This document shows, one piece after another, positions 5,269 to 45,762 of a stretch of 59,529 bases of DNA. The number at the start of each line of letters is the position of its first letter. The stretch's first letter is position 1. A program made the translations under genes and the position numbers. Below the pieces are notes generated by a model. That model was not told the DNA's origin, ran no database searches, and worked only from the letters and a program-made list of their open reading frames with translations. The stretch is from Acidimicrobiales bacterium (lineage in GTDB: Bacteria; Actinomycetota; Acidimicrobiia; Acidimicrobiales; Aldehydirespiratoraceae). Location: the NCBI GenBank assembly GCA_029247365.1, contig JAQWLJ010000048.1, positions 1 to 59,529 on the forward strand, written 5' to 3'.

Positions 5269-5364
5269 GGAGGTGTCCGAGCGCCTGGTGGGCTCCCCCG
5301 CCTTCAAAGCGGGTGGGATGGGTGATCCCTGTCCGGCGGGTTCGATTCCCGTCCACCTCCGCCA
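5269..5364 (+). tRNA. selC: tRNA-Sec (selenocysteine, anticodon TCA)
   Basis: The molecule is 96 nt including an encoded CCA (5362-5364). The acceptor stem GGAGGTG (5269-5275) pairs with CACCTCC (5354-5360). The D stem is GAGC/GCTC (5279-5282/5292-5295). The anticodon stem is CCCGC/GCGGG (5297-5301/5309-5313) with loop CTTCAAA and anticodon TCA at 5304-5306. A long variable arm has the stem GGGAT/ATCCC (5315-5319/5325-5329), and the T arm is CGGG-TTCGATT-CCCG. Anticodon TCA reads UGA, and the long variable arm is the form charged by seryl-tRNA synthetase and then converted by SelA. The selA and selB genes lie 15 kb downstream in the same window, which fixes the identity. Confidence 0.95.
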
Positions 5365-22118: not shown

Positions 22119-23836
22119 TGCACGTTGTCGCCACCGCCGGGCACGTCGACCACGGCAAGTCAACCCTCATCAAAGCCCTCACCGGGACCGACCCCGACCG
22201 GCTCAGGGAAGAGAAGGCCCGCGGCCTCACCATTGATCTTGGGTTCGCCGGCGCCAAACTGCCGTCGGGTCGGGGCATCTCGTTCATCGACGTGCCGGGC
22301 CACGTTCGGTTCCTCAAAAACATGCTCGCCGGCGTGGGTGGCGTCGACGCGTGCGTCTTTGTCGTTGCGGCCACCGAAGGCTGGAAGCCCCAATCAGAGG
22401 AGCACCTGCGGATCTTGAGCCTGCTCGGAATCCAGCACGGTGTGATCGCCCTCACGAAGATCGGTCAGGCCGACGACGATCTTGTTGAGCTCGCTCAGAT
22501 GGAGATCGCAGAGCGAGCCGAGGGCACGTTCCTCACCGACGCCGAGATCGTGCCGGTCGACGCGGTCGACGCAATGGGTATCAGCGACCTCCAGGAGGCG
22601 CTCGACCGGCTGCTCGACGTCACGCCGACTGCGGCCGACATCAAGCAGCCCCGGCTCTGGATCGACCGGGTGTTTGCCGCCAAAGGTGCTGGGACCGTCG
22701 TAACCGGAACCCTCACCGGCGGCATGTTGCGGGTTGACGACGAACTCGTCGTGTTGCCCCACGGCCACGAGGCTCGGATCCGGGCACTCCAGAGTCAGTA
22801 TGCAGATCGCACCAAGGTCGGCCCCGGTAACCGCGTTGCCGCGAACCTGTCGGGCATCTCCTACGATCAGCTTTCCAGAGGCGATGTCCTCGTACGAGAC
22901 GGCGAATGGCACGTGACCCGGCGGGTCGACGCGTCGCTGCAGGTGCTCGACTCACTCGACCGACCGGTCACCAGGCGAGGAGCGCACCTCGCGTACATCG
23001 GGTCCGGCGAGCACCCTGCACGGGTCCGTGTCCTTGGTCCTGACGCAATTGATCCAGGTGCGGAGGGAGCGGTCCGCCTCCACCTTCCCGTCGGCCTGCC
23101 ACTCGTGCCCGGAGACCGCTTCATCCTTCGCGAGTCCGGCCAGGGTGTAACGCTCGGCGGTGGCGAGATCCTCGACGTCGAACCGCTGATAGCCGCAGCA
23201 AAAGCCACGCCCGATCGAGACGTCGACCGCGTGGTCCGTGAACGGGGCAAGGTCGATGTCGACCACCTTCGCCGACTCACCGGCGAGCGGCGCGAACCGA
23301 CGGTTGGGAACTGGGTGGTCGACCCGTACGTGCTTGTCACCGAGGCCGACCGTCTGCGGACCGAGGTCACCAATGCAGGGCCGCTCGGGCTCGATCTTGC
23401 TGGGATCGACGACTTCGGCCGGGCTGTGCTCGACACGCTCGACGACCTGGTGGCCGATGGTGGCCATGTCCGCTTGACGACCGCCGGTGACACGCTCGCC
23501 GACAGCGACCTCGCAGCCCGCTTCGCTGCCGACCCGTTCAACCCGCCCGAGCCCGAGCCAGGTGACCAGGCCGAAATTCGCGAACTCGTCCGGCGCGGCG
23601 ATCTGGTTTCGCAGTCGGGTGTCGTCTTTGCGGCCTCGGCAATCGACGAAGCGGCCCGAGTGGTTGCCCGTTTGCTCGCCGATCAGCCCGACGGCATTAC
23701 CGTCGCCGATGCTCGAGACGCATGGGGGACCAGCCGAAAGTTCGCGATCCCGCTGATCACCCGACTCGATGAGACCGGCGTGACACGCCGACGCGACGAC
23801 CTAAGGATCGCCGGACCTCGGCTGCCGGAGATCTGA
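22118..23836 (+). CDS. selB: Selenocysteine-specific elongation factor SelB
   Basis: 572 residues. The GTPase domain has AGHVDHGKST (residues 7-16), DVPGHVRF and ALTKIG. EF-Tu-like domains 2 and 3 follow (VFAAKGAGTVVTGTLTGG and later), then a C-terminal region with winged-helix repeats ending in WGTSRKFAIPLITRLDETGVTRR, which in the family binds the SECIS hairpin of selenoprotein mRNAs. It delivers selenocysteyl-tRNA(Sec) to UGA codons on the ribosome. Converges on the whiB gene 12 bases later. Confidence 0.96.
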   Translation: MHVVATAGHVDHGKSTLIKALTGTDPDRLREEKARGLTIDLGFAGAKLPSGRGISFIDVPGHVRFLKNMLAGVGGVDACVFVVAATEGWKPQSEEHLRILSLLGIQHGVIALTKIGQADDDLVELAQMEIAERAEGTFLTDAEIVPVDAVDAMGISDLQEALDRLLDVTPTAADIKQPRLWIDRVFAAKGAGTVVTGTLTGGMLRVDDELVVLPHGHEARIRALQSQYADRTKVGPGNRVAANLSGISYDQLSRGDVLVRDGEWHVTRRVDASLQVLDSLDRPVTRRGAHLAYIGSGEHPARVRVLGPDAIDPGAEGAVRLHLPVGLPLVPGDRFILRESGQGVTLGGGEILDVEPLIAAAKATPDRDVDRVVRERGKVDVDHLRRLTGERREPTVGNWVVDPYVLVTEADRLRTEVTNAGPLGLDLAGIDDFGRAVLDTLDDLVADGGHVRLTTAGDTLADSDLAARFAADPFNPPEPEPGDQAEIRELVRRGDLVSQSGVVFAASAIDEAARVVARLLADQPDGITVADARDAWGTSRKFAIPLITRLDETGVTRRRDDLRIAGPRLPEI

Positions 23837-30016: not shown

Positions 30017-30031
30017 TTTACACTTTGTAAA
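30017..30031. promoter_or_regulatory. Inverted-repeat operator candidate TTTACA-CTT-TGTAAA
   Basis: A perfect 6-bp inverted repeat with a 3-bp spacer overlaps the ATG of the plus-strand hydroxylase gene and lies 45 bases upstream of the divergent dioxygenase. A closely matching repeat (TTGACA-TTT-TGTTAA) sits in the divergent promoter of the regulator at 38367-38873. The combined pattern is TTKACA-YTT-TGTWAA. The A/T-rich repeat stands out from very GC-rich surroundings. Confidence 0.6.
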
Positions 30032-31491
30032 TGTCAGCACCGTCGCCGTCAAGGCCCGGGTGGTCCCTCCACCATGTGCAGCAAAGCGGCCGATCGGTGG
30101 ATCGCCTGCTGCGGCCCACCTCGCTCGAGAACGCTCTCGCTCTACTCACCGACCCAGCGGTACGCCCGATTGCAGGTGGCACCGACCTCCTCGTGGACCT
30201 CGACCGCGGCGGCCCCGGGCCCGACGTCGAACTGCTCGACCTCGCTGGCATCGACGAACTCCGGGGCATCACGGTCACCGTCGACCAGGTAACGCTCGGC
30301 GCGCTCACTACCCACAACGAAGTTGTTGCCCATCCCGAGCTTCAGCAGGTCGCCCTTCCCCTCGCCCAAGCGTGCCTGGAGATCGGCTCGCCTCAGCTTC
30401 GGAACCGGGCGACGGTGGCCGGCAACGTCGCCACTGCGAGCCCCGCCAACGACACTATCTCTGCACTGTTGGCCCTCGACGCCTCCGTCGTGCTGCGCTC
30501 AACCGCCGGCGAGCGCAGCGTCGCTCTCGACGACTTTTTCACCGGCTTTCGTTCGACTGACCTCCAACCTGGCGAACTGATCATGGCAATCACGTTCCCT
30601 CCGATGGGGCCGAACACCACCGGTATGTGGGTGAAGCTCGGAAACCGGGCCGCTCAAGCAATCTCCGTAGTCCATCTGGCCGCAACAGTCACCCGCAACG
30701 ACCATGGCGAGGTCCTCGACGCAAAGCTGGCGATCGGTTCCGTTGCGGCACGGGTCGTACGCCTACCGGGTGCCGAAGCCTTGCTCGTCGGCAGCCCACT
30801 CACGGATGAGAGGATCGCCGCAACCGGGCAAGCGGTGGCCGCTGCGGTCTCGCCGATCGACGACGTCCGCGCTACCGGCGAGTACCGCACCGAGACGATC
30901 CCCACACTGGTGCGCCGGACGCTCGCTACGCTGCGCGACGGCGATGCCTCCACCCGATGGCCAAGCGATCCGCCGTGCCTCGGCCGACGGCAGAGGCGCA
31001 AGCCGATCATTGGTGAGGTCGACGAACTGGTCGAGATCAGTGTCATTGTCAACGGTGAGACCCACCGCTCGACGCGAGCCCAGGCCCGTTCGCTGCTCGC
31101 CTGGCTTCGCGACGAAGCCGGTATGACCGGCGCCAAGGAGGGCTGCGCCGAAGGGGAGTGTGGAGCGTGCACCGTTGCGCTCGACGGCCAGGCCGTCATG
31201 AGCTGCCTCGTCAATGCGGCGCAGGCTGATGGCGCTACGGTCGTCACCGCGGAGGGCGTCGCTACCGCTGACGGGCCGAGTCGCCTCCAACAGGCATTCG
31301 TCGATGAGTTCGCCGTCCAATGCGGGTTCTGCATTCCCGGGTTCATTGTCGCCGGGAGCGCATTACTCGCCGAGATCCCACAGCCAACCGATGAGCAGAT
31401 CCGACTCGCACTGTCAGGCAACCTGTGCCGCTGCACCGGCTACTACCCGATCGAGCAGGCCGTCCGGGTCGCTGCGGCGAGCGACTCATGA
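30031..31491 (+). CDS. Xanthine dehydrogenase-type fusion: FAD-binding domain plus [2Fe-2S] domain
   Basis: 486 residues from ATG. The N-terminal 300 or so residues are the FAD-binding medium subunit (PIAGGTDLLVDLD, GSPQLRNRATVAGNVATASPAND). After a linker, residues from about 332 are the small subunit with two [2Fe-2S] motifs: KEGCAEGECGACTVALDG and QCGFCIPGF with [10 protein letters not shown]. The FAD-then-FeS order is opposite to that of classical eukaryotic xanthine dehydrogenase. The stop overlaps the start of the molybdopterin subunit (ATGA), so the two genes make one enzyme. The first cluster motif has the ordinary C-x4-C spacing, unlike the selenium-type proteins. Confidence 0.88.
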   Translation: MSAPSPSRPGWSLHHVQQSGRSVDRLLRPTSLENALALLTDPAVRPIAGGTDLLVDLDRGGPGPDVELLDLAGIDELRGITVTVDQVTLGALTTHNEVVAHPELQQVALPLAQACLEIGSPQLRNRATVAGNVATASPANDTISALLALDASVVLRSTAGERSVALDDFFTGFRSTDLQPGELIMAITFPPMGPNTTGMWVKLGNRAAQAISVVHLAATVTRNDHGEVLDAKLAIGSVAARVVRLPGAEALLVGSPLTDERIAATGQAVAAAVSPIDDVRATGEYRTETIPTLVRRTLATLRDGDASTRWPSDPPCLGRRQRRKPIIGEVDELVEISVIVNGETHRSTRAQARSLLAWLRDEAGMTGAKEGCAEGECGACTVALDGQAVMSCLVNAAQADGATVVTAEGVATADGPSRLQQAFVDEFAVQCGFCIPGFIVAGSALLAEIPQPTDEQIRLALSGNLCRCTGYYPIEQAVRVAAASDS

Positions 31492-33731
31492 GCGTCGGCG
31501 ACTCCCCGCTCCGCCACGATGCAGCGGCCAAGGCCGACGGTTCGGCTGTCTACGCCGGCGACGCCGTACCGGCCAGTGCCCTCCACGCCAAGGCCGTCTT
31601 CTCCGGCAAGGCCCACGCCCGCATGGTGTCGATGTCGACCGCTCCCGCCGAAGCGGTCCGCGGTGTCGTCGCTGTGCTGACCGCCGCAGACGTGCCGGTT
31701 AACGAGTACGGCCTCACCAAGTTCGACCAACCGGTCCTCATTGGCCTGAACGACAGCGGTGCTGCGCCGACGCCAAGCGATGTGTCACGGTGGGAAGCCG
31801 ACCACGTGGCCATCATTGTGGCAGAGACAGCCGCGGCCGCTCATGCCGGGGCCGCTGCACTCGAGATCGAATGGGAGGACCTCCCGATCGTCGCCGATAT
31901 CGACGAGGCCCTCGCCACCGACGCGCCGATCATCCACCCCGAGGACGGGCTGTCCACGAACGCCTACCACCACCTCAAGATCCGCAAGGGCGATCTCGAC
32001 GCAGGCTGGGCCGCGGCTGCGGTGGTCGTCGACGGCACCTACGAGGTCCCCCACCAGGAGCACGCGTTCCTCCAGCCCGAATCGGGCACGTCGTACATCG
32101 ATGACGAGGGGCGGGTCACGATCGAGATCGGCGGCCAGTGGACCTCCGAGGACCAGGAGCAGGTCGCCCACGCGCTCGATCTCGACGCCGAGCGGGTGAG
32201 GATCATCTACCGCGAGATCGGCGGCGCGTTCGGCGGCAAAGAGGACATGTCAATCCAGATCGTCCTTGCGCTGGCCGCCATGCGGCTGGCCGAGCGTGGC
32301 GACCACCGGCCGATCCACTGCCGGTGGTCGCGTGAAGAATCGATCATTGGCCACCACAAACGACACCGCGGCCGTATCCGACTCCGCCTCGGCGCCACCA
32401 ACGATGGCGAGATCACCGCACTCGAAGCCGACGTCGATCTCGACGCGGGCGCCTACAACTACACGTCGAACAAGGTGCTCGGGAACACCCACCTGTCGGT
32501 CGGCGGTGCCTACCGCATCCCGAACGCCCGCATCGACAGCCGGGCGATCTACACCACCACGGTTCCCGGTGGCGCCTTCCGAGGGTTCGGTGGACCACAG
32601 GGTCACTTCGCTATCGAATCGGCCATGAGCAAACTTGCCGCGGAACTTGGGGTCGACCCGATCGAGTTGCGCCTTCGGAACGCGCTGGTCGACGGCGACG
32701 ACGGCATCACCCAGACCGCCATGCCCGAGGGGGTGACCGCCACTGAGGTGATCGCCGCCTGTGCCGACCGAGCCAATCACGGTGAGCCGCTGGCCGACCC
32801 TGCTCCCTTCTCGCCGATCGCCTCGTTGCCGTCGGAGCCGTCCTCGCTGCGTCGCGGCCGTGGCTTTGCATCGGGCTTCAAGAACGTCGGCTTCTCGTTC
32901 GGTTTCCCCGAACGATGCGAAGCCGAGATCCATCTCCATGGGTCCAACGACGACGACGAGCCGACCCACGCCGACCTCTTCCACGGCGGCGCCGAAGTCG
33001 GGCAAGGCTCTCACCTTGCGATGCGGCAGATGGCGGCCGATGCCACAGGCCTGCCGCTCGATGCCGTCGCCGGCCATTTCTCGGACACCGCAACGTCGGG
33101 CGACCCGGGGTCGGCATCCGCCAGCCGACTCACGTTCATGTCCGGCAACTCGATCCTCGGCGCAGCCGAGGAGGCCGAGAAGGCATGGCGCGACGGCATC
33201 CGGCCGGCAGTTGGTCGGTTCCGCTACACACCTCCGCCGACCGAGTCGCTCGATCCCGAGACCGGGGCCGGCGCGCCGAACTTTTCTTACGGCTACATGG
33301 CGCAGTGCATCGAGGTCACCGTCGATGTCGAGACTGGCCATATCCGCGTCGACCGGGTCACCAGCACCCACGACGTCGGCAAGGCAATCAACCCGAGGCT
33401 CGTCCGGGGCCAAATCGAGGGGGCCGTCGTCCAGGCCCACGGCTACGCGTTGTCCGAAGACCTCCAGCTCCGCGACGCCATGGTCACCAACCCGCGCTTC
33501 TCGAGCTACCTCATCCCCGGCATCGGCGACATCCCAACGGTGGTCGACAGTCAGATCCTCGAGCTCGCCGACCCGCTCGGCCCATTCGGCGCGCGCGGGG
33601 TGGCCGAGATGCCATTCATCACCTACGCACCTGCACTCACCGCCGCCGTGCACGACGCCACCGGTGTCTGGTTCGATCAGCTCCCGCTCACCCCGACCCG
33701 CGTGTTGGCCGGCCTGCAGGGCGCGACGTGA
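31488..33731 (+). CDS. Xanthine dehydrogenase-family molybdopterin-binding subunit
   Basis: 747 residues from the ATG at 31488. It carries REIGGAFGGKEDMS (Mo-proximal Gln/Phe loop), the substrate loop PGGAFRGFGGPQ, HGGAEVGQGSHLA, and near the C-terminus ARGVAEMPFITYAPAL, where the catalytic Glu is expected. The Arg in GAFRGFGG is that of xanthine/purine-type enzymes rather than CO dehydrogenase. It oxidises a heterocycle or aldehyde at a Mo centre and passes electrons to the FeS/FAD fusion encoded just upstream. Converges on the crotonase gene. Confidence 0.9.
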   Translation: MSVGDSPLRHDAAAKADGSAVYAGDAVPASALHAKAVFSGKAHARMVSMSTAPAEAVRGVVAVLTAADVPVNEYGLTKFDQPVLIGLNDSGAAPTPSDVSRWEADHVAIIVAETAAAAHAGAAALEIEWEDLPIVADIDEALATDAPIIHPEDGLSTNAYHHLKIRKGDLDAGWAAAAVVVDGTYEVPHQEHAFLQPESGTSYIDDEGRVTIEIGGQWTSEDQEQVAHALDLDAERVRIIYREIGGAFGGKEDMSIQIVLALAAMRLAERGDHRPIHCRWSREESIIGHHKRHRGRIRLRLGATNDGEITALEADVDLDAGAYNYTSNKVLGNTHLSVGGAYRIPNARIDSRAIYTTTVPGGAFRGFGGPQGHFAIESAMSKLAAELGVDPIELRLRNALVDGDDGITQTAMPEGVTATEVIAACADRANHGEPLADPAPFSPIASLPSEPSSLRRGRGFASGFKNVGFSFGFPERCEAEIHLHGSNDDDEPTHADLFHGGAEVGQGSHLAMRQMAADATGLPLDAVAGHFSDTATSGDPGSASASRLTFMSGNSILGAAEEAEKAWRDGIRPAVGRFRYTPPPTESLDPETGAGAPNFSYGYMAQCIEVTVDVETGHIRVDRVTSTHDVGKAINPRLVRGQIEGAVVQAHGYALSEDLQLRDAMVTNPRFSSYLIPGIGDIPTVVDSQILELADPLGPFGARGVAEMPFITYAPALTAAVHDATGVWFDQLPLTPTRVLAGLQGAT

Positions 33732-37006: not shown

Positions 37007-38374
37007 TCAGTCGGTGGGCTGGAACCGGCGGGCGGCGACCGCGTGAGCGGCCAGCTTCTCATCGAGATCGGAAGCGACCAGAAGCCCCGACTCAACCACG
37101 GGTGTGCCGGCAACGATGGTGTGCCACGCCGCGTGTGGACCGGTGCGAAGCCAACCCTCAATGAGGTCGTCCAGCACGCCCGCAAAGATCGGGCCACCGA
37201 GCTTCCAGACGGCAACGTCACCGACTGCACCGACCGACAGCTCACCGAGCTCACCCTCGCGGCCGAGGCATCCGGCCCCACCTCGGGTCGAGATCTCGAG
37301 CACCGTGCGCGCGGTCATCGCGTCAACTCCAGACGTCAGCTTTCCCTGCAGCATCGACAGGCGAGCTTCCTGCCAGAGCGAGGCCGAATCGGCTGACGAC
37401 GAGCCATCACAACCCAGACCGACCGGGCATCCGGCGCGACGGAGGTCGACAACTGGCGCAATACCCGACCCCAGGATCATGTTGGAACTGGGGCAGTGTG
37501 CGATACCGACGCCAGCGGCTCCGAGACGGGCAACTTCATCGGGGTTGGGCATCACGACGTGGGCCCCCCATGAGCGGTCAGACATCCACCCGCAGTGCTC
37601 GTAGTACTCGACGGGTCGCATGCCGAATGTGGCGATGGCGAAGTCGTCGTCTTCGGCGTTCTCGGCGAGGTGCGTGTGCAACCGGACATCGAGTTGCTCG
37701 GCCAGTTCTGCAGAACGGATCATCAGATCGGTCGACACCGTGAACGGTGAACACGGCGCGAGCGCAACCTGCAGCATCGAGCCGTGCGACGGATCGTGAT
37801 GATTTTCCACCGCTCGCTGTGACTCAGCGAGGATGTCGTCCTCATCGCGCACCGCCTCATCGGGGGGAAGCCCACCCTTCGATTCGCCGAGCGACATCGA
37901 GGCGTAGGTCGGATGGAAACGCATCCCAAGATTGGCCGCTGCGCGCACTTCAGCGCTGAGAAGATCGCCGGCCCGCACCGGATGGAGGTAGTGGTGATCC
38001 GACGACGTCGTGCAGCCGCTCATTGCCAGCTCCGCCAAGCCCACCCAGGCCGCGAGGTACTCAGCTTCTTCATCGATCGCCGCGGTCCACAGCGGGTACA
38101 GCGACTGCAGCCACCCAAACAACGGGGCCGAGGTCATCGGTGGGTACGCCCGAGTCAGGTTCTGAAACAGATGATGGTGGGTGTTGATCAGACCAGGTGT
38201 CACCAGACAGCCATCAGCATCGATCAAACGGTTGGCCGTGGGCACGGGGTCAATCGGCGAGCCGACCCCGGAGATGAGCCCATCGGTGATCGCGACCCAA
38301 CCGCCATGGAGTTCACGGCGTTGCGCGTCGACCGTGGCGACGAGCGCCGCATTGCGGATCAGAAGGTCAGTCAT
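37007..38374 (-). CDS. 8-oxoguanine deaminase-like amidohydrolase (TRZ/ATZ family)
   Basis: 455 residues. Full composite-domain amidohydrolase: N-terminal beta strands, the metal motif PGLINTHHHLFQNLTRA, RLHTHLAENAEDDDF, and the metal-binding Asp in VGLGCDGSSSAD. The FQNLTRAYPP and LFGWLQSLYPLW stretches are characteristic of 8-oxoguanine deaminases, which convert 8-oxoguanine to urate. The ATG overlaps the last eight bases of the regulator gene, so regulator and deaminase form one operon. This places it in purine, especially oxidised purine, catabolism. Confidence 0.85.
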   Translation of the reverse strand: MTDLLIRNAALVATVDAQRRELHGGWVAITDGLISGVGSPIDPVPTANRLIDADGCLVTPGLINTHHHLFQNLTRAYPPMTSAPLFGWLQSLYPLWTAAIDEEAEYLAAWVGLAELAMSGCTTSSDHHYLHPVRAGDLLSAEVRAAANLGMRFHPTYASMSLGESKGGLPPDEAVRDEDDILAESQRAVENHHDPSHGSMLQVALAPCSPFTVSTDLMIRSAELAEQLDVRLHTHLAENAEDDDFAIATFGMRPVEYYEHCGWMSDRSWGAHVVMPNPDEVARLGAAGVGIAHCPSSNMILGSGIAPVVDLRRAGCPVGLGCDGSSSADSASLWQEARLSMLQGKLTSGVDAMTARTVLEISTRGGAGCLGREGELGELSVGAVGDVAVWKLGGPIFAGVLDDLIEGWLRTGPHAAWHTIVAGTPVVESGLLVASDLDEKLAAHAVAARRFQPTD

Positions 38375-38873
38375 CGGGGATCAGCGTCGCCCGTTCGGGG
38401 CGAGAAATGGCATTGAGATAGTTGTAAATCGTGATGCGGCTCACGCCCATCATCTCCCCTACCGACTCGACGGCCTTGCGCAGCAGGAACGCGCCCCGCT
38501 CGTCGAGCAGGCGCACCGCCACCTGCTTCTCCTCGCGAGAAAGCTGCGAGAGCGGCGCGCTGAGTTGTTCTTCGACCGCCGCCACCATTTGCGCAAGGGC
38601 GTCGTGGAGATCACCGAAGCGGGTCGCTGACGGCGACTCGCCGAAGCGGACCTGGACGGCAGTCGCTCCATTGGCGAGTGCAGCCCGGCTCATGTCATGC
38701 ACCGCCGCAGTGACGGCGTCGATCGACCCGGCGATGGAGGTAGCGAACGGACCGAGGTCGGGTTCAAGGCCGTTGGCCCGACAGGCTTCGAGTGCAGCCG
38801 TGACGTGCGGACCCGGGGAACCCTCAACGAACGGCTCGACCAGGAATTCGGCGCGAACGGCGTCTGAGGCCAC
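38367..38873 (-). CDS. Regulator: thiamine-binding-like (MTH1187/YkoF) domain fused to YheO-type HTH
   Basis: 168 residues from GTG at 38873; the frame is open much further upstream but only as antisense of the next gene. Residues 5-75 (RAEFLVEPFVEGSPGPHVTA, FATSIAGSIDAVTAAVHDM, NGATAVQVRFG) resemble the small ferredoxin-like MTH1187/YkoF proteins that bind thiamine or related molecules. Residues 110-165 match the YheO HTH: SREEKQVAVRLLDERGAFLL, then SVGEMMGVSRITIYNYL. It probably binds the inverted repeats at 38895 and 30017 and autoregulates. Effector unknown; a purine or ureide would fit the neighbours. Confidence 0.7.
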   Translation of the reverse strand: MASDAVRAEFLVEPFVEGSPGPHVTAALEACRANGLEPDLGPFATSIAGSIDAVTAAVHDMSRAALANGATAVQVRFGESPSATRFGDLHDALAQMVAAVEEQLSAPLSQLSREEKQVAVRLLDERGAFLLRKAVESVGEMMGVSRITIYNYLNAISRPERATLIPDD

Positions 38874-38894
38874 GACCCCACCGTAGCTGCGCCT

Positions 38895-38919: not shown

Positions 38920-40152
38920 ATGACCGACCTTCGTATCGACATCGATCGGCTGATCGAACGCCTTGCGGCGCTGGCCGAGATCGGCGCGATCCACGGCACG
39001 GAAGGCTGTGCCCGCCTTGCGCTCACAGACGAGGACAGGGCGGGCCGCGACCTGGTCGTCTCGTGGATGCATGATCTCGACCTCGACGTCACGGTCGACG
39101 GCATCGGCAACGTCGTCGGCGTGATGGCAGGAACCGCCGACGACCAGCCGGTTATGACCGGCTCACACATCGACACCGTCCGCACGGGTGGCCGCTACGA
39201 CGGCAACCTGGGCGTGCTCGCAGGGCTCGAAGTCGTCGAAACACTTCGAACTGCGGGCGTCACCCCGACCCGTCCACTCGCCGTCGCATTCTTCAGCGAC
39301 GAAGAAGGTGCTCGCTTCCCGCCCGACATGCTCGGCAGCCTCGTGTATGTCGGCGGCATGGGCGTTGAGGAAGCCCACGCCATCGAGGGCATTGACGGCA
39401 CGACGGTCGGTACCGAACTCGACCGCATCGGGTACCTCGGTCCCGAGCCGCTCCCCGGTCCCGCGCCGCACGCGTTCATCGAACTCCACGTCGAACAGGG
39501 ACCAGTCCTCGAAGCCGAGGGCCTCACAATCGGCGCCGTCACCGGCGTCCAAGGCATCAGTTGGGCTGAGGTGACCGTTACCGGTCAGTCCAACCACGCA
39601 GGCACGACACCGATGGCGCTCCGAAAGGACCCGGGCGTCGTCGCGTTCAAGGTCGGCGCGTTCGTGAACGAACTCGCACACGAACTTGGCGCACCGCAGG
39701 TCGCCACGGTTGGCCGGATCGAGATGCACCCCAACCTCGTCAACGTCGTCCCCGCTTCCGCCACGTTCACCATCGATCTCCGCCATACCGACAACGACGT
39801 GCTCTTCGAGGCCGAACGCCGCACCAAGGAATTCCTCGCCGCCACCGCTGCCGCCGAGCACTGCACGATCGAAACTCGCAGTCTTGCCCGCTTCGACCCA
39901 GTCGTCTTCGACGAAACCGTGATCTGCGCCGTTGAGCGCGCCGCCGCCAGCCAGAACCGAACCGTGCGCCGGATGCCCTCCGGTGCCGGCCACGATGCCC
40001 AAATGCTGGCTCGGGTCTGCCCCACCGGCATGGTGTTCGTCCCGAGCGTCGACGGCGTCAGTCACAACCCGGCCGAGTACACCTCGCCCGACGATCTCGA
40101 GGCAGGCGCGAGCGTGCTGCTTCAGGTCATGCTCGAGCTGGCAAACACATGA
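38920..40152 (+). CDS. Zn-dependent amidohydrolase of the allantoate/N-carbamoyl-L-amino acid hydrolase family
   Basis: 410 residues. M20-type metallohydrolase: VMTGSHIDTVRTGGRYDGNLG supplies His and Asp metal ligands, FFSDEEGARFP the catalytic and bridging Glu, and FIELHVEQGPVLEAEG another ligand. SGAGHDAQMLARVCPTGMVFVP is typical of allantoate amidohydrolase and L-carbamoylase. It hydrolyses a ureido bond. First gene of a tight run (overlapping the carbamoylase by four bases) that contains purine-type enzymes, so allantoate or a related ureide is a likely substrate. Confidence 0.85.
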   Translation: MTDLRIDIDRLIERLAALAEIGAIHGTEGCARLALTDEDRAGRDLVVSWMHDLDLDVTVDGIGNVVGVMAGTADDQPVMTGSHIDTVRTGGRYDGNLGVLAGLEVVETLRTAGVTPTRPLAVAFFSDEEGARFPPDMLGSLVYVGGMGVEEAHAIEGIDGTTVGTELDRIGYLGPEPLPGPAPHAFIELHVEQGPVLEAEGLTIGAVTGVQGISWAEVTVTGQSNHAGTTPMALRKDPGVVAFKVGAFVNELAHELGAPQVATVGRIEMHPNLVNVVPASATFTIDLRHTDNDVLFEAERRTKEFLAATAAAEHCTIETRSLARFDPVVFDETVICAVERAAASQNRTVRRMPSGAGHDAQMLARVCPTGMVFVPSVDGVSHNPAEYTSPDDLEAGASVLLQVMLELANT

Positions 40153-41144
40153 CCTCCCATTCCCCCGCATTTGACCCGGACGCAGCGATTGCCTCCGCCC
40201 ACCAGGACCGCCCACCGCGACGACTCACCGTCGCTGCCGGCCAGCTTGGGCCGATCAGCGCGAGCGAATCGCGCGAGGCGGTTGTCACCCGACTGATCCG
40301 AATGCTCGAGCAAGCCCACTGCGCGGGAGCCGAGCTCATTGCCTTTCCCGAGCTTGCGCTCACCACGTTCTTCCCACGCTGGTACGTCGAAGGCGAACCT
40401 GAACTCGACCTCGACTCGTTCTACGAGACGCAGATGCCCGGCCCCGCCACCCAGCCGCTGTTCGACCGCGCCGCCGAACTCGGCATCGGGTTTGCACTCG
40501 GTTACGCCGAGCTCACCCCCGATGGTCATCGCTACAACACGCAGATCCTCGTCGAGCGCGACGGTTCGATCGTGGGCCGCTACCACAAGGTCCATCTGCC
40601 TGGTCACCGTGAGCACGAGCCCTGGCGCGAATTCCAACATCTCGAGCGGCGCTACTTCGAAAAAGGCGACGCCTTCCACACCTGGAACTCGTTCGGTGGT
40701 GTCGTCGGGTTGGCAACTTGCAACGACCGCCGCTGGCCTGAGACGTACCGGGTTCTCGCGCTCCAGGGCGCCGAGCTGATCCTCATTGGCTACAACACGC
40801 CCAAGCACTACGCACCCGATCCGAGCCAGAATCCGTTGCAGGGATTCCACAATCGGCTCGTGATGCAAGCGGGGGCCTACCAGAACGGCTGCTACGTGAT
40901 CGGCGTCGCCAAAGGTGGCCGCGAAGAGGGGGTCGACTCGCTCGCCGAAAGCTGCATCATCGCCCCGAGTGGCACGATCCTGGCTGACTGCCGAACCGAG
41001 GCCGACGAGGTGATCGTCGCCGAGATCGATCTCGCAGAGACATCGAAATACAAGGAAACGCTCTTCGATTTCGAGCGGTACCGGCGCCCCGAGGTGTACG
41101 GACCAATCACTGAACAAACGGGCGCGATCCCACCGGAGGACTGA
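40149..41144 (+). CDS. Nitrilase-superfamily carbamoylase (N-carbamoyl-D-amino acid hydrolase/beta-ureidopropionase-like)
   Basis: 331 residues. The catalytic triad is visible: Glu in LIAFPELALTTFFP, Lys in YHKVHLPGH and Cys in GLATCNDRRWPETYR. HREHEPWREFQHLERRYFEKGD and CNDRRWPE are close to D-carbamoylases. It removes CO2 and NH3 from N-carbamoyl compounds. It overlaps the preceding amidohydrolase and ends two bases before the xanthine dehydrogenase, consistent with successive steps in ureide breakdown. Confidence 0.87.
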   Translation: MTSHSPAFDPDAAIASAHQDRPPRRLTVAAGQLGPISASESREAVVTRLIRMLEQAHCAGAELIAFPELALTTFFPRWYVEGEPELDLDSFYETQMPGPATQPLFDRAAELGIGFALGYAELTPDGHRYNTQILVERDGSIVGRYHKVHLPGHREHEPWREFQHLERRYFEKGDAFHTWNSFGGVVGLATCNDRRWPETYRVLALQGAELILIGYNTPKHYAPDPSQNPLQGFHNRLVMQAGAYQNGCYVIGVAKGGREEGVDSLAESCIIAPSGTILADCRTEADEVIVAEIDLAETSKYKETLFDFERYRRPEVYGPITEQTGAIPPED

Positions 41145-41145
41145 C

Positions 41146-43734
41146 ATGGCTGGTTTCACCGTCAACGGACAGACCGTCGAGGTCCGCGACCATCACGAAC
41201 ACCTGCTTGCCGCGCTGCGCGACGAGCTCCGCATCACATCACCCAAGGACGGCTGCTCGCCATCGGGCCAGTGCGGCTGCTGCACCGTGCTGATCGACGG
41301 CAAGGCCCGCATCTCGTGCCAGACCTCGCTCGAGAAGGCCGACGGCGCCGAGATCACCACCCTCGAGGGTGTACCCGAGGACGAACGGACTCGGATGGCC
41401 GATGCCTTCGCCGCGCACGGCGCCCTTCAGTGCGGGTTCTGCACTCCCGGAATCGTCATGCGCACCGTCGCCTTGCTCGGACGCGACAAGCAGACAACCC
41501 GAGACGACGCGGCCCGTCACCTGGGGGCCCACCTCTGCCGCTGCACGGGCTACGTGAAGATCCTTGACGCGGTCGAGTCGCTCGCACTGGGCGAAACCTC
41601 CGTTGCCATCACCGCCGGCGGTGTCGGTGGACGCGGCACGAAGTACGAAGGCCAAGCCCTTACCCTCGGCGATCGCGGGTTCATCGATGACATGGAGCCA
41701 GCCGGCTGCTTCCACGGCGCCGTCGTGCTCAGCGAGCACGCCCGCGCCGACATCCACGCGATCGATTCCTCGGCAGCGATGGCGATGCCCGGCGTGGTCG
41801 CAGTCTTCACTGCGGCCGACGTACCGGGCGAGCTTCGCAGCGGGCTGATCCACAAGGACTGGCCGGCCTTCATCCCCATTGGCGGCCGCACCTCGTACCT
41901 CGGCGACGTACTCGCCCTCGTGGTGGCCGAGACCCGCGCCCAGGCCCGGGCCGCAACATCAGCCGTGGCCATCGACTATGGCGTCTTGCAACCGTTCACG
42001 AACCCGGCCGATGCGCTCGCAACCGACGAAGCAGCCGTATGGACCCTCGATGGCAACATGCTCAGCCGGTCGGCCTATTCGCGTGGCGGTGTCGATGAAG
42101 CGTTCGAGCGGGCCACCCACGTTGCCCGTGACACGTTCCAGACCCAGCGCATCGACCATGCCTTCCTCGAGCCGGAGTCGACCCTTGCCGTCCCGACCGT
42201 CGGCGATGACAACGCGACCGAATCGCTGTACGTGTACTCGGGCGGCCAGGGCGTCTGGGACGATCGCAACGACATCGCTCGCATGCTCAACATCTCCACC
42301 GACCAGGTCACAGTCGAGCTCGTGTCGAACGGTGGCGCCTTCGGCGGCAAGGAGGACATGTCGAACCAGGGCCAGACGGCCCTCGCCGCATGGTTGCTCG
42401 GCCGTCCGGTCAAGACCACGTTTTCTCGCGAGGAGTCGTTCCTCGTTCACACGAAACGGCACCCGATCCGAATGCAGTACGAGGTCGGCAGCGACGCCAA
42501 CGGCAAGCTCCTCGCGGTCAGGGCGAAGATGATCGGCGATTCCGGCCCTTACGCGTCGGTCGGTATGAAGGTGCTCGAACGGGCCGCTGGCCACGCGAGC
42601 GGCCCGTACGTTACCGAGACGATCGACATCGAGGCGACCGCCGTCCGCACCAACAATTCGGTCTGCGGTGCCTTCCGTGGCTTCGGTGCCAACCAAGCCC
42701 AGTTTGCGATGGAAGGGATGATGGACCGCCTCGCAGAGATGGCCGGTATCTCGGGATGGGAGATCCGGAGCCGCAACGTCGTTGAGCCCGGCGTGGTGTG
42801 GGGCCCGGGTCAGATCATGGACGATGGCTCCCTCGGCGCCCGGGCCTGCCTTGACGCGGTCAAGCCTGCCTGGGACGCCGCCGAAGCCGCCGGCAACCCG
42901 GTCGGCATGGGCCTTGGACTGAAGAACTCGGGCCTCGGCAACGGTGCCAACGAGGTCAGCCGCTCAACCGTTCGCTTCGATCCCGACGACACCGTCGAGA
43001 TCCGCCACTGCTGGACGGAGATGGGGCAGGGCATCCACACCGTCGCTCGTCAGGTCGCGGTCGAAGAACTCGGTATCGAAGCTGACCGCATCACGGTCGT
43101 CGTCGACACCACCCGTGAACTCGGCGCGGGCCAGACCACGGGATCTCGCGGCACAGTCATGGGCGCCGGCTCCGTTGCCGATGCGTGCCGTAACGCCATT
43201 GCCGGCGGCTGCGAGGTCGGCGTCGAATACGAGGGTGTCTATGTCGTCGACTGGACCAACTCGATCAACGAGGGGCTCGAGAACCCAGTCATCCATTCGA
43301 CGTTTGGCTACGCCGCGCAGCTGGTCGAACTCGATGCCGAGTCCGGCGACATTGCCAAAGTGGTTGCTGCCCACGATGTTGGACGAGCGGTGAACCCGTT
43401 GCTGTGCGAGGGCCAGATCGAAGGTGCCGTCCATATGGGCCTCGGGTACGCGCTCAGTGAGGGCTTCCCCTGTGACGAGAACGGCAAACCCCGCAACGAG
43501 ACCCTCCGTTCACTCGACATCATTCGCCCAAAAGACATGCCCCCGACAGAGGTCATCCTCGTTGAATCCCCTGATCCCAACTCGCCGTACGGCATCAAGG
43601 GTGTAGGTGAGATCGGCCTCGTTCCCACCGCGGGAGCGGTCGCAGCCGCACTCCACGCCCACGATGGTGAGTGGCGCAACGAACTGCCGATGCGGACCGA
43701 GAAGAACCGCGAGCGCGCTAGCGCCTGGCAGTGA
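41146..43734 (+). CDS. Selenium-dependent-type xanthine dehydrogenase (fused [2Fe-2S]-molybdopterin)
   Basis: 862 residues. The [2Fe-2S] region (1-150) has C37-x5-C43-x2-C46 in GCSPSGQCGCCTV, then QCGFCTPGI and LCRCTGY. The molybdopterin domain follows, with GGAFGGKEDMSNQGQTALAAW, SREESFLVHTKRHP, CGAFRGFGANQ, TEMGQGIH and the C-terminal GIKGVGEIGLVP holding the catalytic Glu. This fused form without an FAD domain, and the KEDMS and HTKRHP stretches, match the selenium-dependent molybdenum hydroxylase family, whose Mo centre carries a labile selenium rather than selenocysteine. No in-frame UGA is present. The SsnA gene downstream and the sel genes in the window support the call. Probable role: xanthine or other purine hydroxylation. 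Confidence 0.85.
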   Translation: MAGFTVNGQTVEVRDHHEHLLAALRDELRITSPKDGCSPSGQCGCCTVLIDGKARISCQTSLEKADGAEITTLEGVPEDERTRMADAFAAHGALQCGFCTPGIVMRTVALLGRDKQTTRDDAARHLGAHLCRCTGYVKILDAVESLALGETSVAITAGGVGGRGTKYEGQALTLGDRGFIDDMEPAGCFHGAVVLSEHARADIHAIDSSAAMAMPGVVAVFTAADVPGELRSGLIHKDWPAFIPIGGRTSYLGDVLALVVAETRAQARAATSAVAIDYGVLQPFTNPADALATDEAAVWTLDGNMLSRSAYSRGGVDEAFERATHVARDTFQTQRIDHAFLEPESTLAVPTVGDDNATESLYVYSGGQGVWDDRNDIARMLNISTDQVTVELVSNGGAFGGKEDMSNQGQTALAAWLLGRPVKTTFSREESFLVHTKRHPIRMQYEVGSDANGKLLAVRAKMIGDSGPYASVGMKVLERAAGHASGPYVTETIDIEATAVRTNNSVCGAFRGFGANQAQFAMEGMMDRLAEMAGISGWEIRSRNVVEPGVVWGPGQIMDDGSLGARACLDAVKPAWDAAEAAGNPVGMGLGLKNSGLGNGANEVSRSTVRFDPDDTVEIRHCWTEMGQGIHTVARQVAVEELGIEADRITVVVDTTRELGAGQTTGSRGTVMGAGSVADACRNAIAGGCEVGVEYEGVYVVDWTNSINEGLENPVIHSTFGYAAQLVELDAESGDIAKVVAAHDVGRAVNPLLCEGQIEGAVHMGLGYALSEGFPCDENGKPRNETLRSLDIIRPKDMPPTEVILVESPDPNSPYGIKGVGEIGLVPTAGAVAAALHAHDGEWRNELPMRTEKNRERASAWQ

Positions 43735-43985
43735 CCACCCGGCGGCTCCTGCAGCTCTTCGCGTGGGGAATCGGTGTCCTCGTCGCCATCGGGGTCGCGA
43801 TCGTCGTGTGGGCGTGGTCTGTTCCCGACGTCGTCGACGCCAACGGCAGGCTCGTGGCCGACACCCCCCGCATCCAAACCCGCACGCTGCTCGTTCTCAT
43901 CGTCGGCCTCGGCGTGATGATCGGGGGCGGTGTCGTCACCACGCAGCTCGGCAACCGAGCACGCAGGCGCTGCGAAGTGGGATGA
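43731..43985 (+). CDS. Small two-helix membrane protein
   Basis: 84 residues from GTG, overlapping the end of the xanthine dehydrogenase by four bases. Two membrane segments (LFAWGIGVLVAIGVAIVVW and TLLVLIVGLGVMIGGGVV) flank a short outside loop, and the tail is basic. No family is recognised. Its position inside the operon suggests a link to the hydroxylase, perhaps as an anchor or electron-transfer partner, but nothing in the sequence shows a redox motif. Confidence 0.7.
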   Translation: MTTRRLLQLFAWGIGVLVAIGVAIVVWAWSVPDVVDANGRLVADTPRIQTRTLLVLIVGLGVMIGGGVVTTQLGNRARRRCEVG

Positions 43986-43992
43986 TTGAGCC

Positions 43993-45021
43993 GTGACGAT
44001 CACGACTCCGGGCATGGTGTGCGCCCATCACCACCTCTACAGCGCTCTCGCTCGGGGGATGCCGGCACCGCCTAGCAGGCCCAGAGGCTTCCAGGAGATC
44101 CTCGATCTGGTGTGGTGGCGCCTCGATCAAGCACTAGACCTTGAGGCGATTGAATGGTCGGCCAAACTCGGTGCGCTCGAAGCACTCGAACGGGGCACTA
44201 CGGCGATCATTGACCATCACGAGTCGCCGAACGCCATCGAGGGTTCGCTCACCGTCATCGCTGATGCGTGCGAGGAGGTCGGGGTCCGCGTGTCGTGCTC
44301 GTACGGCATCACCGATCGCCACGGTCCCGACGGGGCCGCAGCCGGGCTGGCCGAGAACGACCGGTTCCTCGGCGATGGCGAGCGTGAGGGCTACGTCGGC
44401 CTCCACGCCGCGTTCACCTGCTCCGACGACACGATCGCTGCGGCAGCCGAAATGGCCACCAAACACGACGTTGGTGTCCACGTCCACGTCGCCGAGAGCG
44501 ACAACGACACCTGGTCGCGCCTCGTCGCACATAGTGATGACGACTGGCTGATCGTGCACGGCGTACATCTCCCTGACGACCACGCGCTGCGGGGCACCCT
44601 CGTGCACAACCCACGATCGAACATGAACAACTCGGTTGGCTACGCGAGGCCCAGTCGGCTCGGCCTGCCGGTCGCGCTCGGCACCGATGGCATCGGTGCC
44701 GACATGCTCGAGGAGTTCCGACTCGCCTACGTTGCTGCCCGAGCCGAGGACGTGACTGCCGATCCTGAGCTTCCGTGGAGCTGGCTCAGCGTGGGTTGGG
44801 ATCTGATGCCTGCCGCCCTTGATGACGAGGTCTGCTGGGCGGCTGAGTCCGACGACCCGTGGCATCTCGCGTTCACCACCGGCGTGTCGCCGCTCGAGGT
44901 AGCGCGCGATGGTGAGATCATCTGGGACGGTGAACCAACGCTGGTCGACGGCGACGAGATCCGGGCCAAGGCCACCGAAGCAGCGGCAAAACTCCACGCC
45001 CGTCTGGCCGACATCGAGTAG
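43993..45021 (+). CDS. ssnA: SsnA-like aminohydrolase, compact form
   Basis: 342 residues from GTG. The core matches SsnA: PGMVCAHHHLYSALARGMP, VWWRLDQALDLEAIEWSAKLG, GTTAIIDHHESPNAIEGSL, the metal ligands in HVHVAESDND and ALGTDGIGADM. SsnA is usually about 440 residues; here the first 50-60 residues (half of the small beta-sandwich) are absent because a stop lies six bases before the GTG, and the C-terminal part is shortened too. The metal-binding barrel residues remain. SsnA is a recognised companion of selenium-dependent molybdenum hydroxylases; its substrate is not established. Confidence 0.8.
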   Translation: MTITTPGMVCAHHHLYSALARGMPAPPSRPRGFQEILDLVWWRLDQALDLEAIEWSAKLGALEALERGTTAIIDHHESPNAIEGSLTVIADACEEVGVRVSCSYGITDRHGPDGAAAGLAENDRFLGDGEREGYVGLHAAFTCSDDTIAAAAEMATKHDVGVHVHVAESDNDTWSRLVAHSDDDWLIVHGVHLPDDHALRGTLVHNPRSNMNNSVGYARPSRLGLPVALGTDGIGADMLEEFRLAYVAARAEDVTADPELPWSWLSVGWDLMPAALDDEVCWAAESDDPWHLAFTTGVSPLEVARDGEIIWDGEPTLVDGDEIRAKATEAAAKLHARLADIE

Positions 45022-45024
45022 CTC

Positions 45025-45762
45025 ATGATCCCCTATGACGACGCACTACGCGAGCGCCTGCGCGTCAACCTTGCTGCTCACGACATCCGCCATCATCGGC
45101 TCGATGGCCGACGACACGCAGCGGTGAGCATCATCGTGCTCGACAGCGACCATCATGCCCACGGCACAGATCACGTCTACGAGCAGCTCGGTACGGCAGC
45201 CCGTCGCGATCTGATGACGGGCGTGCCCGGCATCGACGATGACCCAAGCTTCAACGGATCGGTGAGCGGCACTGCGGGCGGTGCTGCCTTCCTGTTGACC
45301 CGCCGAGGCGCCCGCATGAAGGATCATCCTGGTCAATGGGCGTTCCCCGGCGGCCGGATCGACACAGGCGAGACGCCAGAACAGGCGGCACGACGAGAGG
45401 TCAGAGAAGAGGTCGGGCTCACCGACCTCGAGCTGCTCGGCCAGCTCGACGACTACCCCACCCGTTCGGGCTACGTCATCACACCCTTCGTCTTCTGGGC
45501 CGGCAAAGACGCCGAACCCGTCCCCGAACCGGGCGAAGTCCAGTCGATCCATCGCATTGGCATCACCCAGCTTCTGCGGGCCGACTCGCCACGATTCGTA
45601 TCGATCCCGGAGAGTGATCGGCCGGTCATCCAGGTCCCAGTCGGCGGTGATCTCATCCATGCACCAACTGGTGCGGTTATGTACCAGTTCCGGGCTGTGG
45701 CCTACGACGGCATCGGCGAGCGTGTCGACGAGTACGAACAACCCGTGTTCGCGTGGAGCTGA
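45025..45762 (+). CDS. NUDIX hydrolase (CoA pyrophosphatase-like)
   Basis: 245 residues. The NUDIX box is [24 protein letters not shown], about residues 108-131, preceded by [17 protein letters not shown] as in NudL-type CoA diphosphatases, although the N-terminal 90 residues are divergent. It starts four bases after the SsnA-like gene and ends the operon. Cleaving a nucleoside diphosphate derivative of a damaged purine would fit the neighbours but is only a guess. Confidence 0.8.

What the first reader, a model, noticed from the sequence alone, without database searches (positions are those of the whole stretch)
38920..45762. Seven-gene run built around a selenium-dependent-type xanthine dehydrogenase and SsnA
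Amidohydrolase, carbamoylase, fused xanthine dehydrogenase, membrane protein, SsnA-like hydrolase and NUDIX are joined by overlaps or gaps of at most eight bases. SsnA and the C-x5-C-x2-C fused hydroxylase are both markers of the selenium-dependent molybdenum hydroxylase trait, which uses SelD for a labile Se cofactor. Together with selA/selB, the organism appears to use selenium in two distinct ways. The small membrane protein at 43731 and the NUDIX enzyme are not standard members and may be new components.
Basis: partly seen in the sequence, partly recalled or inferred. Interest (0 to 1): 0.8.

Follow-up and report, generated by a model that had tools for sequence, protein, structure and literature searches.

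The report
Actinobacterial reductive uric-acid breakdown genes
A run of genes first read as a selenium-using xanthine enzyme cluster looks instead like an actinobacterial version of the recently described pathway that breaks uric acid down by reduction, built from partly different enzymes and without clear evidence that its xanthine-type enzyme uses selenium.

Summary
The gene run is real but has six genes, not seven. Its fused hydroxylase (41146-43734) is TIGR03311-like but misses the model's cut-off (783.8 < 830.45). The SsnA-like protein fails both SsnA cut-offs and lacks the N-terminal domain. The genome has selD and yqeC; no yqeB was found. C-x5-C is not a selenium marker: the five relatives with yqeB nearby lie in a C-x4-C clade (27 of 27), the window's enzyme in the C-x5-C remainder (89 of 89 assessable). 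Relatives' hydroxylase/SsnA pairs sit with parts of the reductive urate pathway of PMC12507026: YgfK-like or F420-type reductase, hydantoinase, diaminopropionate lyase. Of 46 family genomes with the hydroxylase, 25 have the F420-type orthologue, 18 the YgfK type, none both. The window adds an N-carbamoyl-D-amino-acid-hydrolase homologue and an M20 carbamoylase. Best reading: an acidimicrobial-type variant of reductive urate breakdown. Gaps: neither reductase was found in the window's own genome, the hydroxylase's direction is inferred, and uricase was not searched for. For selenium: selD co-occurs with the hydroxylase within the order, and yqeC neighbours the hydantoinase.

The parts
41146..43734 (+). 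Fused [2Fe-2S] + molybdopterin hydroxylase, 862 aa, no FAD domain; proposed XdhD-type urate dehydroxylase (urate to yanthine)
   Evidence: TIGR03311 783.8 bits, under cut-off 830.45; Pfam Fer2, Fer2_2, Ald_Xan_dh_C, MoCoBD_1, MoCoBD_2; orthologue in 46 of 51 family genomes. Direction inferred.
43993..45021 (+). Short SsnA-type amidohydrolase, 342 aa; proposed ring-opening hydrolase
   Evidence: SsnA models best but under cut-off; TIM-barrel model, mean pLDDT 89.6, pTM 0.90; no N-terminal domain; next to the hydroxylase or close by in 22 of 23 family loci
40149..41144 (+). CN_hydrolase; proposed N-carbamoyl-D-amino-acid hydrolase, cleaving one ureido group
   Evidence: best PDB match 6le2 N-carbamoyl-D-amino-acid hydrolase, 354.9 bits, against 62 bits for the best non-DCase entry; TIGR03381 only 106 of 410
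38920..40152 (+). M20 hydantoinase/carbamoylase; proposed cleavage of the other ureido group (YgeY-like role)
   Evidence: TIGR01879 409.8 > 204 and NF006771 'allantoate amidohydrolase' 426.4 > 399; AllC equivalog TIGR03176 297.8 < 597.75; PDB 5thw 342 bits, 8c46 N-carbamoyl-beta-alanine amidohydrolase 294, allantoate amidohydrolase 1z2l 226
37007..38374 (-). 8-oxoguanine deaminase (would give urate from 8-oxoguanine)
   Evidence: NF006055 561.4 > 532 bits; conserved beside the cluster in many family loci
30031..31491 (+). FAD + [2Fe-2S] subunit of a second, conventional-type xanthine dehydrogenase
   Evidence: TIGR02963 297.3 bits, cut-off 467 not met
31425..33731 (+). Molybdopterin subunit of the same second xanthine dehydrogenase
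   Evidence: pucD 464.5 bits, cut-off 783.65 not met
38431..38886 (+). 151-aa protein of unknown family, conserved just upstream of the M20 gene
   Evidence: no Pfam hit; 47-87% identical copies in 12 family loci
43731..43985 (+). 84-aa protein with two hydrophobic stretches; not a conserved member
   Evidence: found in 1 of 23 family loci and 0 of 80 named loci
45025..45762 (+). NUDIX protein; local addition, not core
   Evidence: PF00293 75 bits; 6 of 23 family loci, 0 of 80 named loci
5269..5364 (+). tRNA-Sec
   Evidence: ARAGORN and Rfam RF01852, 64 bits
20841..22118 (+). selA
   Evidence: TIGR00474 375.2 > 267.9
22118..23836 (+). selB
   Evidence: TIGR00475 307.3 > 242.25

Best explanation
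The cluster is an actinobacterial (Acidimicrobiia-type) variant of the reductive urate-degradation pathway described from E. coli and C. difficile (PMC12507026). Urate comes from xanthine through the conventional XDH (30031-33731) and from 8-oxoguanine through the deaminase (37007-38374). The fused hydroxylase (41146-43734) then runs as a reductase and removes one oxygen from urate, giving yanthine (2,8-dioxopurine). A yanthine reductase, either YgfK-like or an F420-type luciferase-family enzyme in relatives, dearomatises it. The short SsnA (43993-45021) opens the first ring, a D-hydantoinase (own genome, G000:C15) the second, and the N-carbamoyl-D-amino-acid-hydrolase homologue and the M20 carbamoylase (window) strip the two ureido groups in place of YgeW/UacY and YgeY. 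A PLP-dependent lyase finishes the work. Shown here: gene identities, conservation, gene company, mutual exclusion of the two reductase types. Inferred: every reaction, the direction of the hydroxylase, the electron donor and the PLP lyase's role. Selenium in the hydroxylase is neither required by the class nor excluded for this genome.
For: Hydroxylase and SsnA stay together: SsnA in 22 of 23 family loci, 11 of 14 further loci of order, class and phylum, 26 of 28 named actinobacterial loci. Relatives' clusters hold YgfK-like (TIGR03315 454 bits over its first 410 positions), F420-type LLM enzyme, D-hydantoinase, diaminopropionate ammonia-lyase (NF006058 339 > 276), a carbamoyltransferase and carbamate kinase (387 > 266). 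YgfK type 18, F420-type orthologue 25, both 0, neither 3 of 46 family genomes with the hydroxylase (4.7e-10 by a count that ignores kinship); both occur inside the own genus (4 F420-type, 3 YgfK-type of 9). Named actinobacterial loci: 17, 6, 0 both, 5 neither of 28. The carbamoylase pair is D-carbamoylase-like plus M20, which fits a D-hydantoinase route; own D-hydantoinase TIGR02033 518.9 > 393.25. A second, conventional XDH next door leaves xanthine oxidation already provided for.
Against: The own genome (98.2% complete) has no F420-type orthologue at E<=1e-90 and no YgfK-like match at E<=1e-40, and 10.2 kb around the YgfK gene of its near relative G042 finds only scattered matches of at most 227 bases: lost, unassembled, or replaced by something else. 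The mutual exclusion depends on my cut between E 2e-149 and 5e-115; 8 of the 18 YgfK genomes also hold a more distant LLM enzyme (about 49-54% identical). D-hydantoinase and PLP genes lie on other contigs. No diaminopropionate lyase of the YgeX family was sought genome-wide in the own genome; only another PLP enzyme (PALPa, no NCBIfam hit) was found. The M20 protein passes an 'allantoate amidohydrolase' subfamily cut-off, as the oxidative route would want. No cut-off of YgfK, YgeW or SsnA models is met. No enzyme was assayed.
Confidence: 0.62

Rival explanations
1. One reading: the fused enzyme is a selenium-dependent xanthine dehydrogenase, matured with SelD and Yqe proteins, working oxidatively on xanthine.
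For: Best model is TIGR03311. selD and yqeC are in the genome; yqeC lies next to the D-hydantoinase in the own genome and in G042 and near it in G020 and G032. In the order selD accompanies the hydroxylase (11 of 13 with, 3 of 17 without; p 6e-4 ignoring kinship). In C. difficile selD and yqeB are needed for growth on urate and xanthine, yqeC not (PMC11448449, passages).
Against: Cut-off missed; no yqeB over cut-off in 9 of 9 genus genomes; yqeB loci in the family serve another Mo hydroxylase; 27 of 28 orthologue-bearing genomes outside the family have neither yqeB nor yqeC and 3 of those 28 no selD, among them the single-contig G423; a conventional XDH is next door.
Confidence: 0.13
2. Oxidative purine breakdown: both hydroxylases make urate, which goes by uricase to allantoin and allantoate, and the M20 protein is an allantoate amidohydrolase.
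For: M20 protein passes NF006771 'allantoate amidohydrolase' (426 > 399); 8-oxoguanine deaminase and conventional XDH are typical of purine use.
Against: AllC equivalog cut-off missed by half (298 of 598); PDB scores favour carbamoylases (342) over allantoate amidohydrolase (226); does not explain SsnA, the D-carbamoylase homologue, nor the YgfK/F420-type swap.
Confidence: 0.15
3. The module works on another N-heterocycle, for instance a pyrimidine or hydantoin, with D-hydantoinase and D-carbamoylase as a general hydantoin route.
For: D-hydantoinase and D-carbamoylase homologues; Foldseek's top hit for the short SsnA is an isocytosine deaminase (TMq 0.82), though all such amidohydrolases are alike.
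Against: Steady company of 8-oxoguanine deaminase and conventional XDH points to purines; YgfK and SsnA are enzymes of the urate pathway in E. coli (PMC12507026).
Confidence: 0.1

Closest known systems
Reductive uric acid degradation pathway of E. coli and C. difficile (PMC12507026; passages and sections 5 and 9 read)
   Same: XDH-type enzyme paired with SsnA; YgfK-type or F420-type reductase, hydantoinase, carbamoylase functions and diaminopropionate lyase in relatives' clusters
   Different: SsnA is an N-terminally short form; an N-carbamoyl-D-amino-acid-hydrolase homologue and an M20 carbamoylase stand where YgeW/UacY and YgeY would be; hydroxylase has no FAD subunit; YgfK-like protein is only 585 aa; an F420-type reductase was reported there for Chloroflexota, here it is in Actinomycetota; parts are scattered over contigs in the window's genome
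Selenium-dependent xanthine dehydrogenase TIGR03311 (e.g. EF_2570 of E. faecalis, PMC2276186, parts 1-2 of 4 read)
   Same: same fused [2Fe-2S]-Mo architecture, full-length alignment
   Different: cut-off missed; C-x5-C instead of C-x4-C; separate branch of the tree; no yqeB found
E. coli XdhD/YgfM-SsnA with YqeB/YqeC
   Same: hydroxylase plus SsnA
   Different: In the window's GTDB family the yqeB/yqeC genes accompany another enzyme (L067: TIGR03313 664 bits, NF043082 659, neither over cut-off)
N-carbamoyl-D-amino-acid hydrolase / D-hydantoinase route
   Same: both enzymes present as close homologues
   Different: carried beside a purine-type hydroxylase rather than as a stand-alone hydantoin route

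Membership tests
Selenium-dependent xanthine dehydrogenase / SDMH (TIGR03311) | Score over curated cut-off 830.45 | tested here: not met
   783.8 bits; controls L224 1487.7, L231 1217.1, L233 1348.9, L239 1211.4, L230 1339.4
Selenium-dependent xanthine dehydrogenase / SDMH (TIGR03311) | selD in the genome | tested here: met
   359.6 bits > 125, with one in-frame TGA; explained already by the selenocysteine system
Selenium-dependent xanthine dehydrogenase / SDMH (TIGR03311) | yqeB in the genome (yqeB plus yqeC together is the signature, PMC5029168, passages) | tested here: not met
   no match at E<=0.001 in the own genome; 0 of 9 genus genomes over cut-off; 28 of 51 family genomes over it
Selenium-dependent xanthine dehydrogenase / SDMH (TIGR03311) | yqeC in the genome | tested here: met
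   163.3 bits > 73.05
Selenium-dependent xanthine dehydrogenase / SDMH (TIGR03311) | Labile selenium at the Mo centre | not testable with these tools
   needs purified enzyme
SsnA (TIGR03314 / PRK07203) | Score over curated cut-offs 455.5 / 444 | tested here: not met
   232.9 / 246 bits; full-length actinobacterial L124 reaches 397 / 411, also under
SsnA (TIGR03314 / PRK07203) | N-terminal domain ahead of the barrel | tested here: not met
   one residue of open frame before the start; model is a barrel of 342 residues
SsnA (TIGR03314 / PRK07203) | Conserved His/Asp positions of the metal site (assignment recalled) | tested here: met
   H12, H14, H163, H165, H189, D232 invariant in 16 of 16 aligned sequences
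Reductive urate pathway | XdhD-type hydroxylase with SsnA | tested here: met
   by homology only
Reductive urate pathway | Yanthine reductase (YgfK, UacX or F420-type) in the same genome | tested here: not met
   neither YgfK-like nor F420-type found in the own genome; UacX not searched; 43 of 46 family genomes with the hydroxylase have exactly one type
Reductive urate pathway | Hydantoinase (HyuA) | tested here: met
   G000:C15, TIGR02033 518.9 > 393.25
Reductive urate pathway | Enzymes for both ureido groups | tested here: inconclusive
   two carbamoylase-type hydrolases in the window, not YgeW/UacY
Reductive urate pathway | Diaminopropionate ammonia-lyase (YgeX) | tested here: inconclusive
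   own genome has PALPa, 67% identical to the cluster-linked enzyme of L057, of unknown activity; YgeX itself was not searched for in the own genome

The most novel reading that the evidence does not exclude
Acidimicrobiia and kin carry a reductive urate pathway that pairs a FAD-less, C-x5-C, probably selenium-free urate dehydroxylase with a minimal one-domain SsnA, and swaps its yanthine reductase freely between a coenzyme-F420 enzyme and a short YgfK even inside one genus, while a D-carbamoylase replaces the carbamoyltransferase step.
Probability: 0.35. Interest if true: 0.72.

Novelty: new variant of a known kind. Interest (0 to 1): 0.52.

Why it matters
Reductive urate breakdown was characterised in 2025 in E. 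coli and C. difficile (PMC12507026). If the reading holds, it extends with altered parts to environmental Actinomycetota. The YgfK/F420-type exclusion gives a direct test of which enzymes reduce yanthine. It also warns that 'selenium-dependent xanthine dehydrogenase' should not be transferred to the C-x5-C branch, since the yqeB-linked members seen here are all C-x4-C. The short SsnA scores under the family cut-offs, so surveys built on SsnA models may miss this branch (inference).

Tried and rejected
A TGA reported inside an orthologue (G081) proved to be its natural stop codon. The C-x5-C motif was tested as a selenium marker and rejected. The idea that the 84-aa membrane protein and the NUDIX protein are new components was rejected for lack of conservation. 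The idea that the own genome's missing reductase lies in the neighbourhood seen in G042 was tested and not borne out. PDB searches of the two PLP enzymes gave only weak matches to cysteine synthases and serine dehydratases. A literature search for acidimicrobial urate or selenium XDH work gave nothing on the point (15 of 590 papers listed). Searching 'yanthine' gave two papers.


Full report
Observation. Six + strand genes fill 38920-45762, joined by overlaps of 4 or gaps of 1, 3 and 7 bases. Order: M20 carbamoylase, CN_hydrolase, fused [2Fe-2S]-Mo hydroxylase, 84-aa two-helix protein, short SsnA-like amidohydrolase, NUDIX. Divergently upstream is an 8-oxoguanine deaminase (561.4 > 532 bits), and at 30031-33731 a second XDH of the usual FAD/FeS and Mo make-up (no model cut-off met). 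tRNA-Sec, selA and selB are in the same window. The window is the whole contig C51 of a 3.1 Mb, 98.2% complete genome.

Selenium. The hydroxylase's best model is TIGR03311 (783.8 bits), clearly ahead of ordinary XDH models (430.7), but under the cut-off of 830.45. selD (with an in-frame TGA, as in all 44 family genomes in which it was found, of 51) and yqeC are in the genome. yqeB is not: no match in the own genome, none over cut-off in the 9 genus genomes, though 28 of 51 family genomes have it over cut-off, 27 of them among the 46 with the hydroxylase. In 11 yqeB loci that I fetched from the family none holds the hydroxylase's orthologue, and 10 of 11 hold a different Mo-subunit relative; in L067 it is TIGR03313/XdhA-like with yqeB and yqeC beside it. 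In a phylum sample of 396 genomes, 30 hold the hydroxylase (E<=1e-200) and 27 of those 30 hold selD, against 270 of 396 overall. Of the 28 outside the family, 1 has yqeB and 1 has yqeC, the same genome. G423, a single contig of 4.6 Mb, has hydroxylase, SsnA, F420-type enzyme, YgeX-like and hydantoinase homologues in one locus and no selD match. Against this, within the order selD goes with the hydroxylase (11 of 13 against 3 of 17; p 6e-4, kinship ignored), and yqeC sits beside the hydantoinase gene in the own genome.

Motif and tree. All 27 have C-x4-C in the first cluster motif (17 by script, 10 read from the printed stretches); of the other 90, 89 have C-x5-C (86 by script, 3 read) and one lacks the region. 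yqeB lies within the fetched flanks of 5 of 80 named loci, all five in the C-x4-C branch. Five C-x4-C members score 1211-1488 on TIGR03311; window, L114 and L116 score 784-791; L124, L195 and L212 score 888-1009. So C-x5-C does not mark the selenium trait.

What travels with it. In 23 family loci SsnA is found in 22, M20 in 17, CN_hydrolase in 12, NUDIX in 6, the 84-aa protein in 1. Farther out SsnA is found in 11 of 14 loci and 26 of 28 named actinobacterial loci. Neighbouring genes in relatives proved to be a YgfK-like protein of 585 aa (TIGR03315 454 bits, cut-off 835 not met, first 410 positions), an LLM-class F420-type enzyme (no cut-off met), diaminopropionate ammonia-lyase (339 > 276), carbamate kinase (387 > 266), an ornithine-carbamoyltransferase/YgeW-type protein (no cut-off met) and D-hydantoinase. 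These are the parts of the reductive urate pathway (PMC12507026, sections 5 and 9 and passages read), in which XdhD makes yanthine, YgfK or UacX reduces it, SsnA and HyuA open the rings, YgeW/UacY and YgeY remove the ureido groups and YgeX finishes. That paper reports an F420-type candidate in Chloroflexota and SsnA in Actinomycetota.

Reductase swap. (F420-type) matched 37 of 51 genomes at E<=1e-90; I took the 27 at E<=2.3e-149 as orthologues, the next being 5.3e-115. (YgfK-like) matched 18 of 51. Among the 46 genomes with the hydroxylase: 25, 18, both 0, neither 3 (own genome, G008, G038). Two genomes with the F420-type orthologue show no hydroxylase (G046, G047). Eight of the 18 YgfK genomes do hold a more distant LLM enzyme. 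Within the own genus 4 genomes have the F420 type, 3 YgfK, 2 neither. In G040, G042 and G043 the YgfK gene is near an indolepyruvate:ferredoxin-oxidoreductase-type gene. The own genome lacks both, and a 10.2 kb query around the G042 gene found only fragments.

Window enzymes. The CN_hydrolase is much closer to N-carbamoyl-D-amino-acid hydrolases (355 bits) than to other members (62 bits), and the own D-hydantoinase is a clear member. The M20 protein is closest to carbamoylases and deacylases but also passes an 'allantoate amidohydrolase' subfamily cut-off. The short SsnA is preceded by a single open codon after a stop; 21 actinobacterial loci including the window have under 30 open residues upstream. 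Its model is a confident barrel (pLDDT 89.6, pTM 0.90), and the histidines and aspartate expected at the metal site are invariant in 16 aligned sequences.

Mechanism. I take the hydroxylase as a urate dehydroxylase rather than a xanthine oxidiser because a conventional XDH is next door, it keeps company with SsnA and the yanthine-reductase types, and it lacks an FAD part, like the C. difficile XdhD for which ferredoxin is proposed (PMC12507026). This is inference; no reaction was tested. The weakest links are the missing reductase and the unsought oxidative genes.

Literature. PMC2276186: parts 1-2 of 4. PMC12507026: passages, sections 5 and 9. PMC11448449 and PMC5029168: passages. PMC12990295: listing only. 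Novelty rests in the held library alone.

Noticed in passing
window 14460-16004 (-): 514-aa protein with an N-terminal XdhC-like [2Fe-2S] region and about 370 C-terminal residues without a Pfam hit.
   Followed up: no
L155 8015-10809 (own genome, G000:C17); L057 12437-15025: Pair of PLP-dependent enzymes (PALPa and a second PALP). PALPa has no NCBIfam hit but is present in 46 of 51 family genomes and near the hydroxylase in 9 of 28 actinobacterial and 11 of 25 other C-x5-C named loci: a possible unreported pathway part.
   Followed up: partly
L133 9157-10083: In G017 yqeC lies about 140 bases from, and divergent to, a tRNA-Sec gene.
   Followed up: partly
L067 550-10857 and similar loci: yqeB/yqeC loci of the family hold another XdhA/XdhD-like enzyme, SsnA-like and other amidohydrolases and an XdhC-type factor: a separate candidate selenium-cofactor locus.
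   Followed up: partly
L073 9201-10127 and 43 other family genomes: SelD has one in-frame TGA in all 44 family genomes where it was found.
   Followed up: no
L050 and L051 (G020): One genome carries two hydroxylase-SsnA clusters; the second has hydantoinase directly after SsnA.
   Followed up: no
L148 4844-11161: YgfK-like gene near a 1181-aa indolepyruvate:ferredoxin-oxidoreductase-type gene (NF009589 1362 > 816), perhaps its source of reduced ferredoxin.
   Followed up: partly
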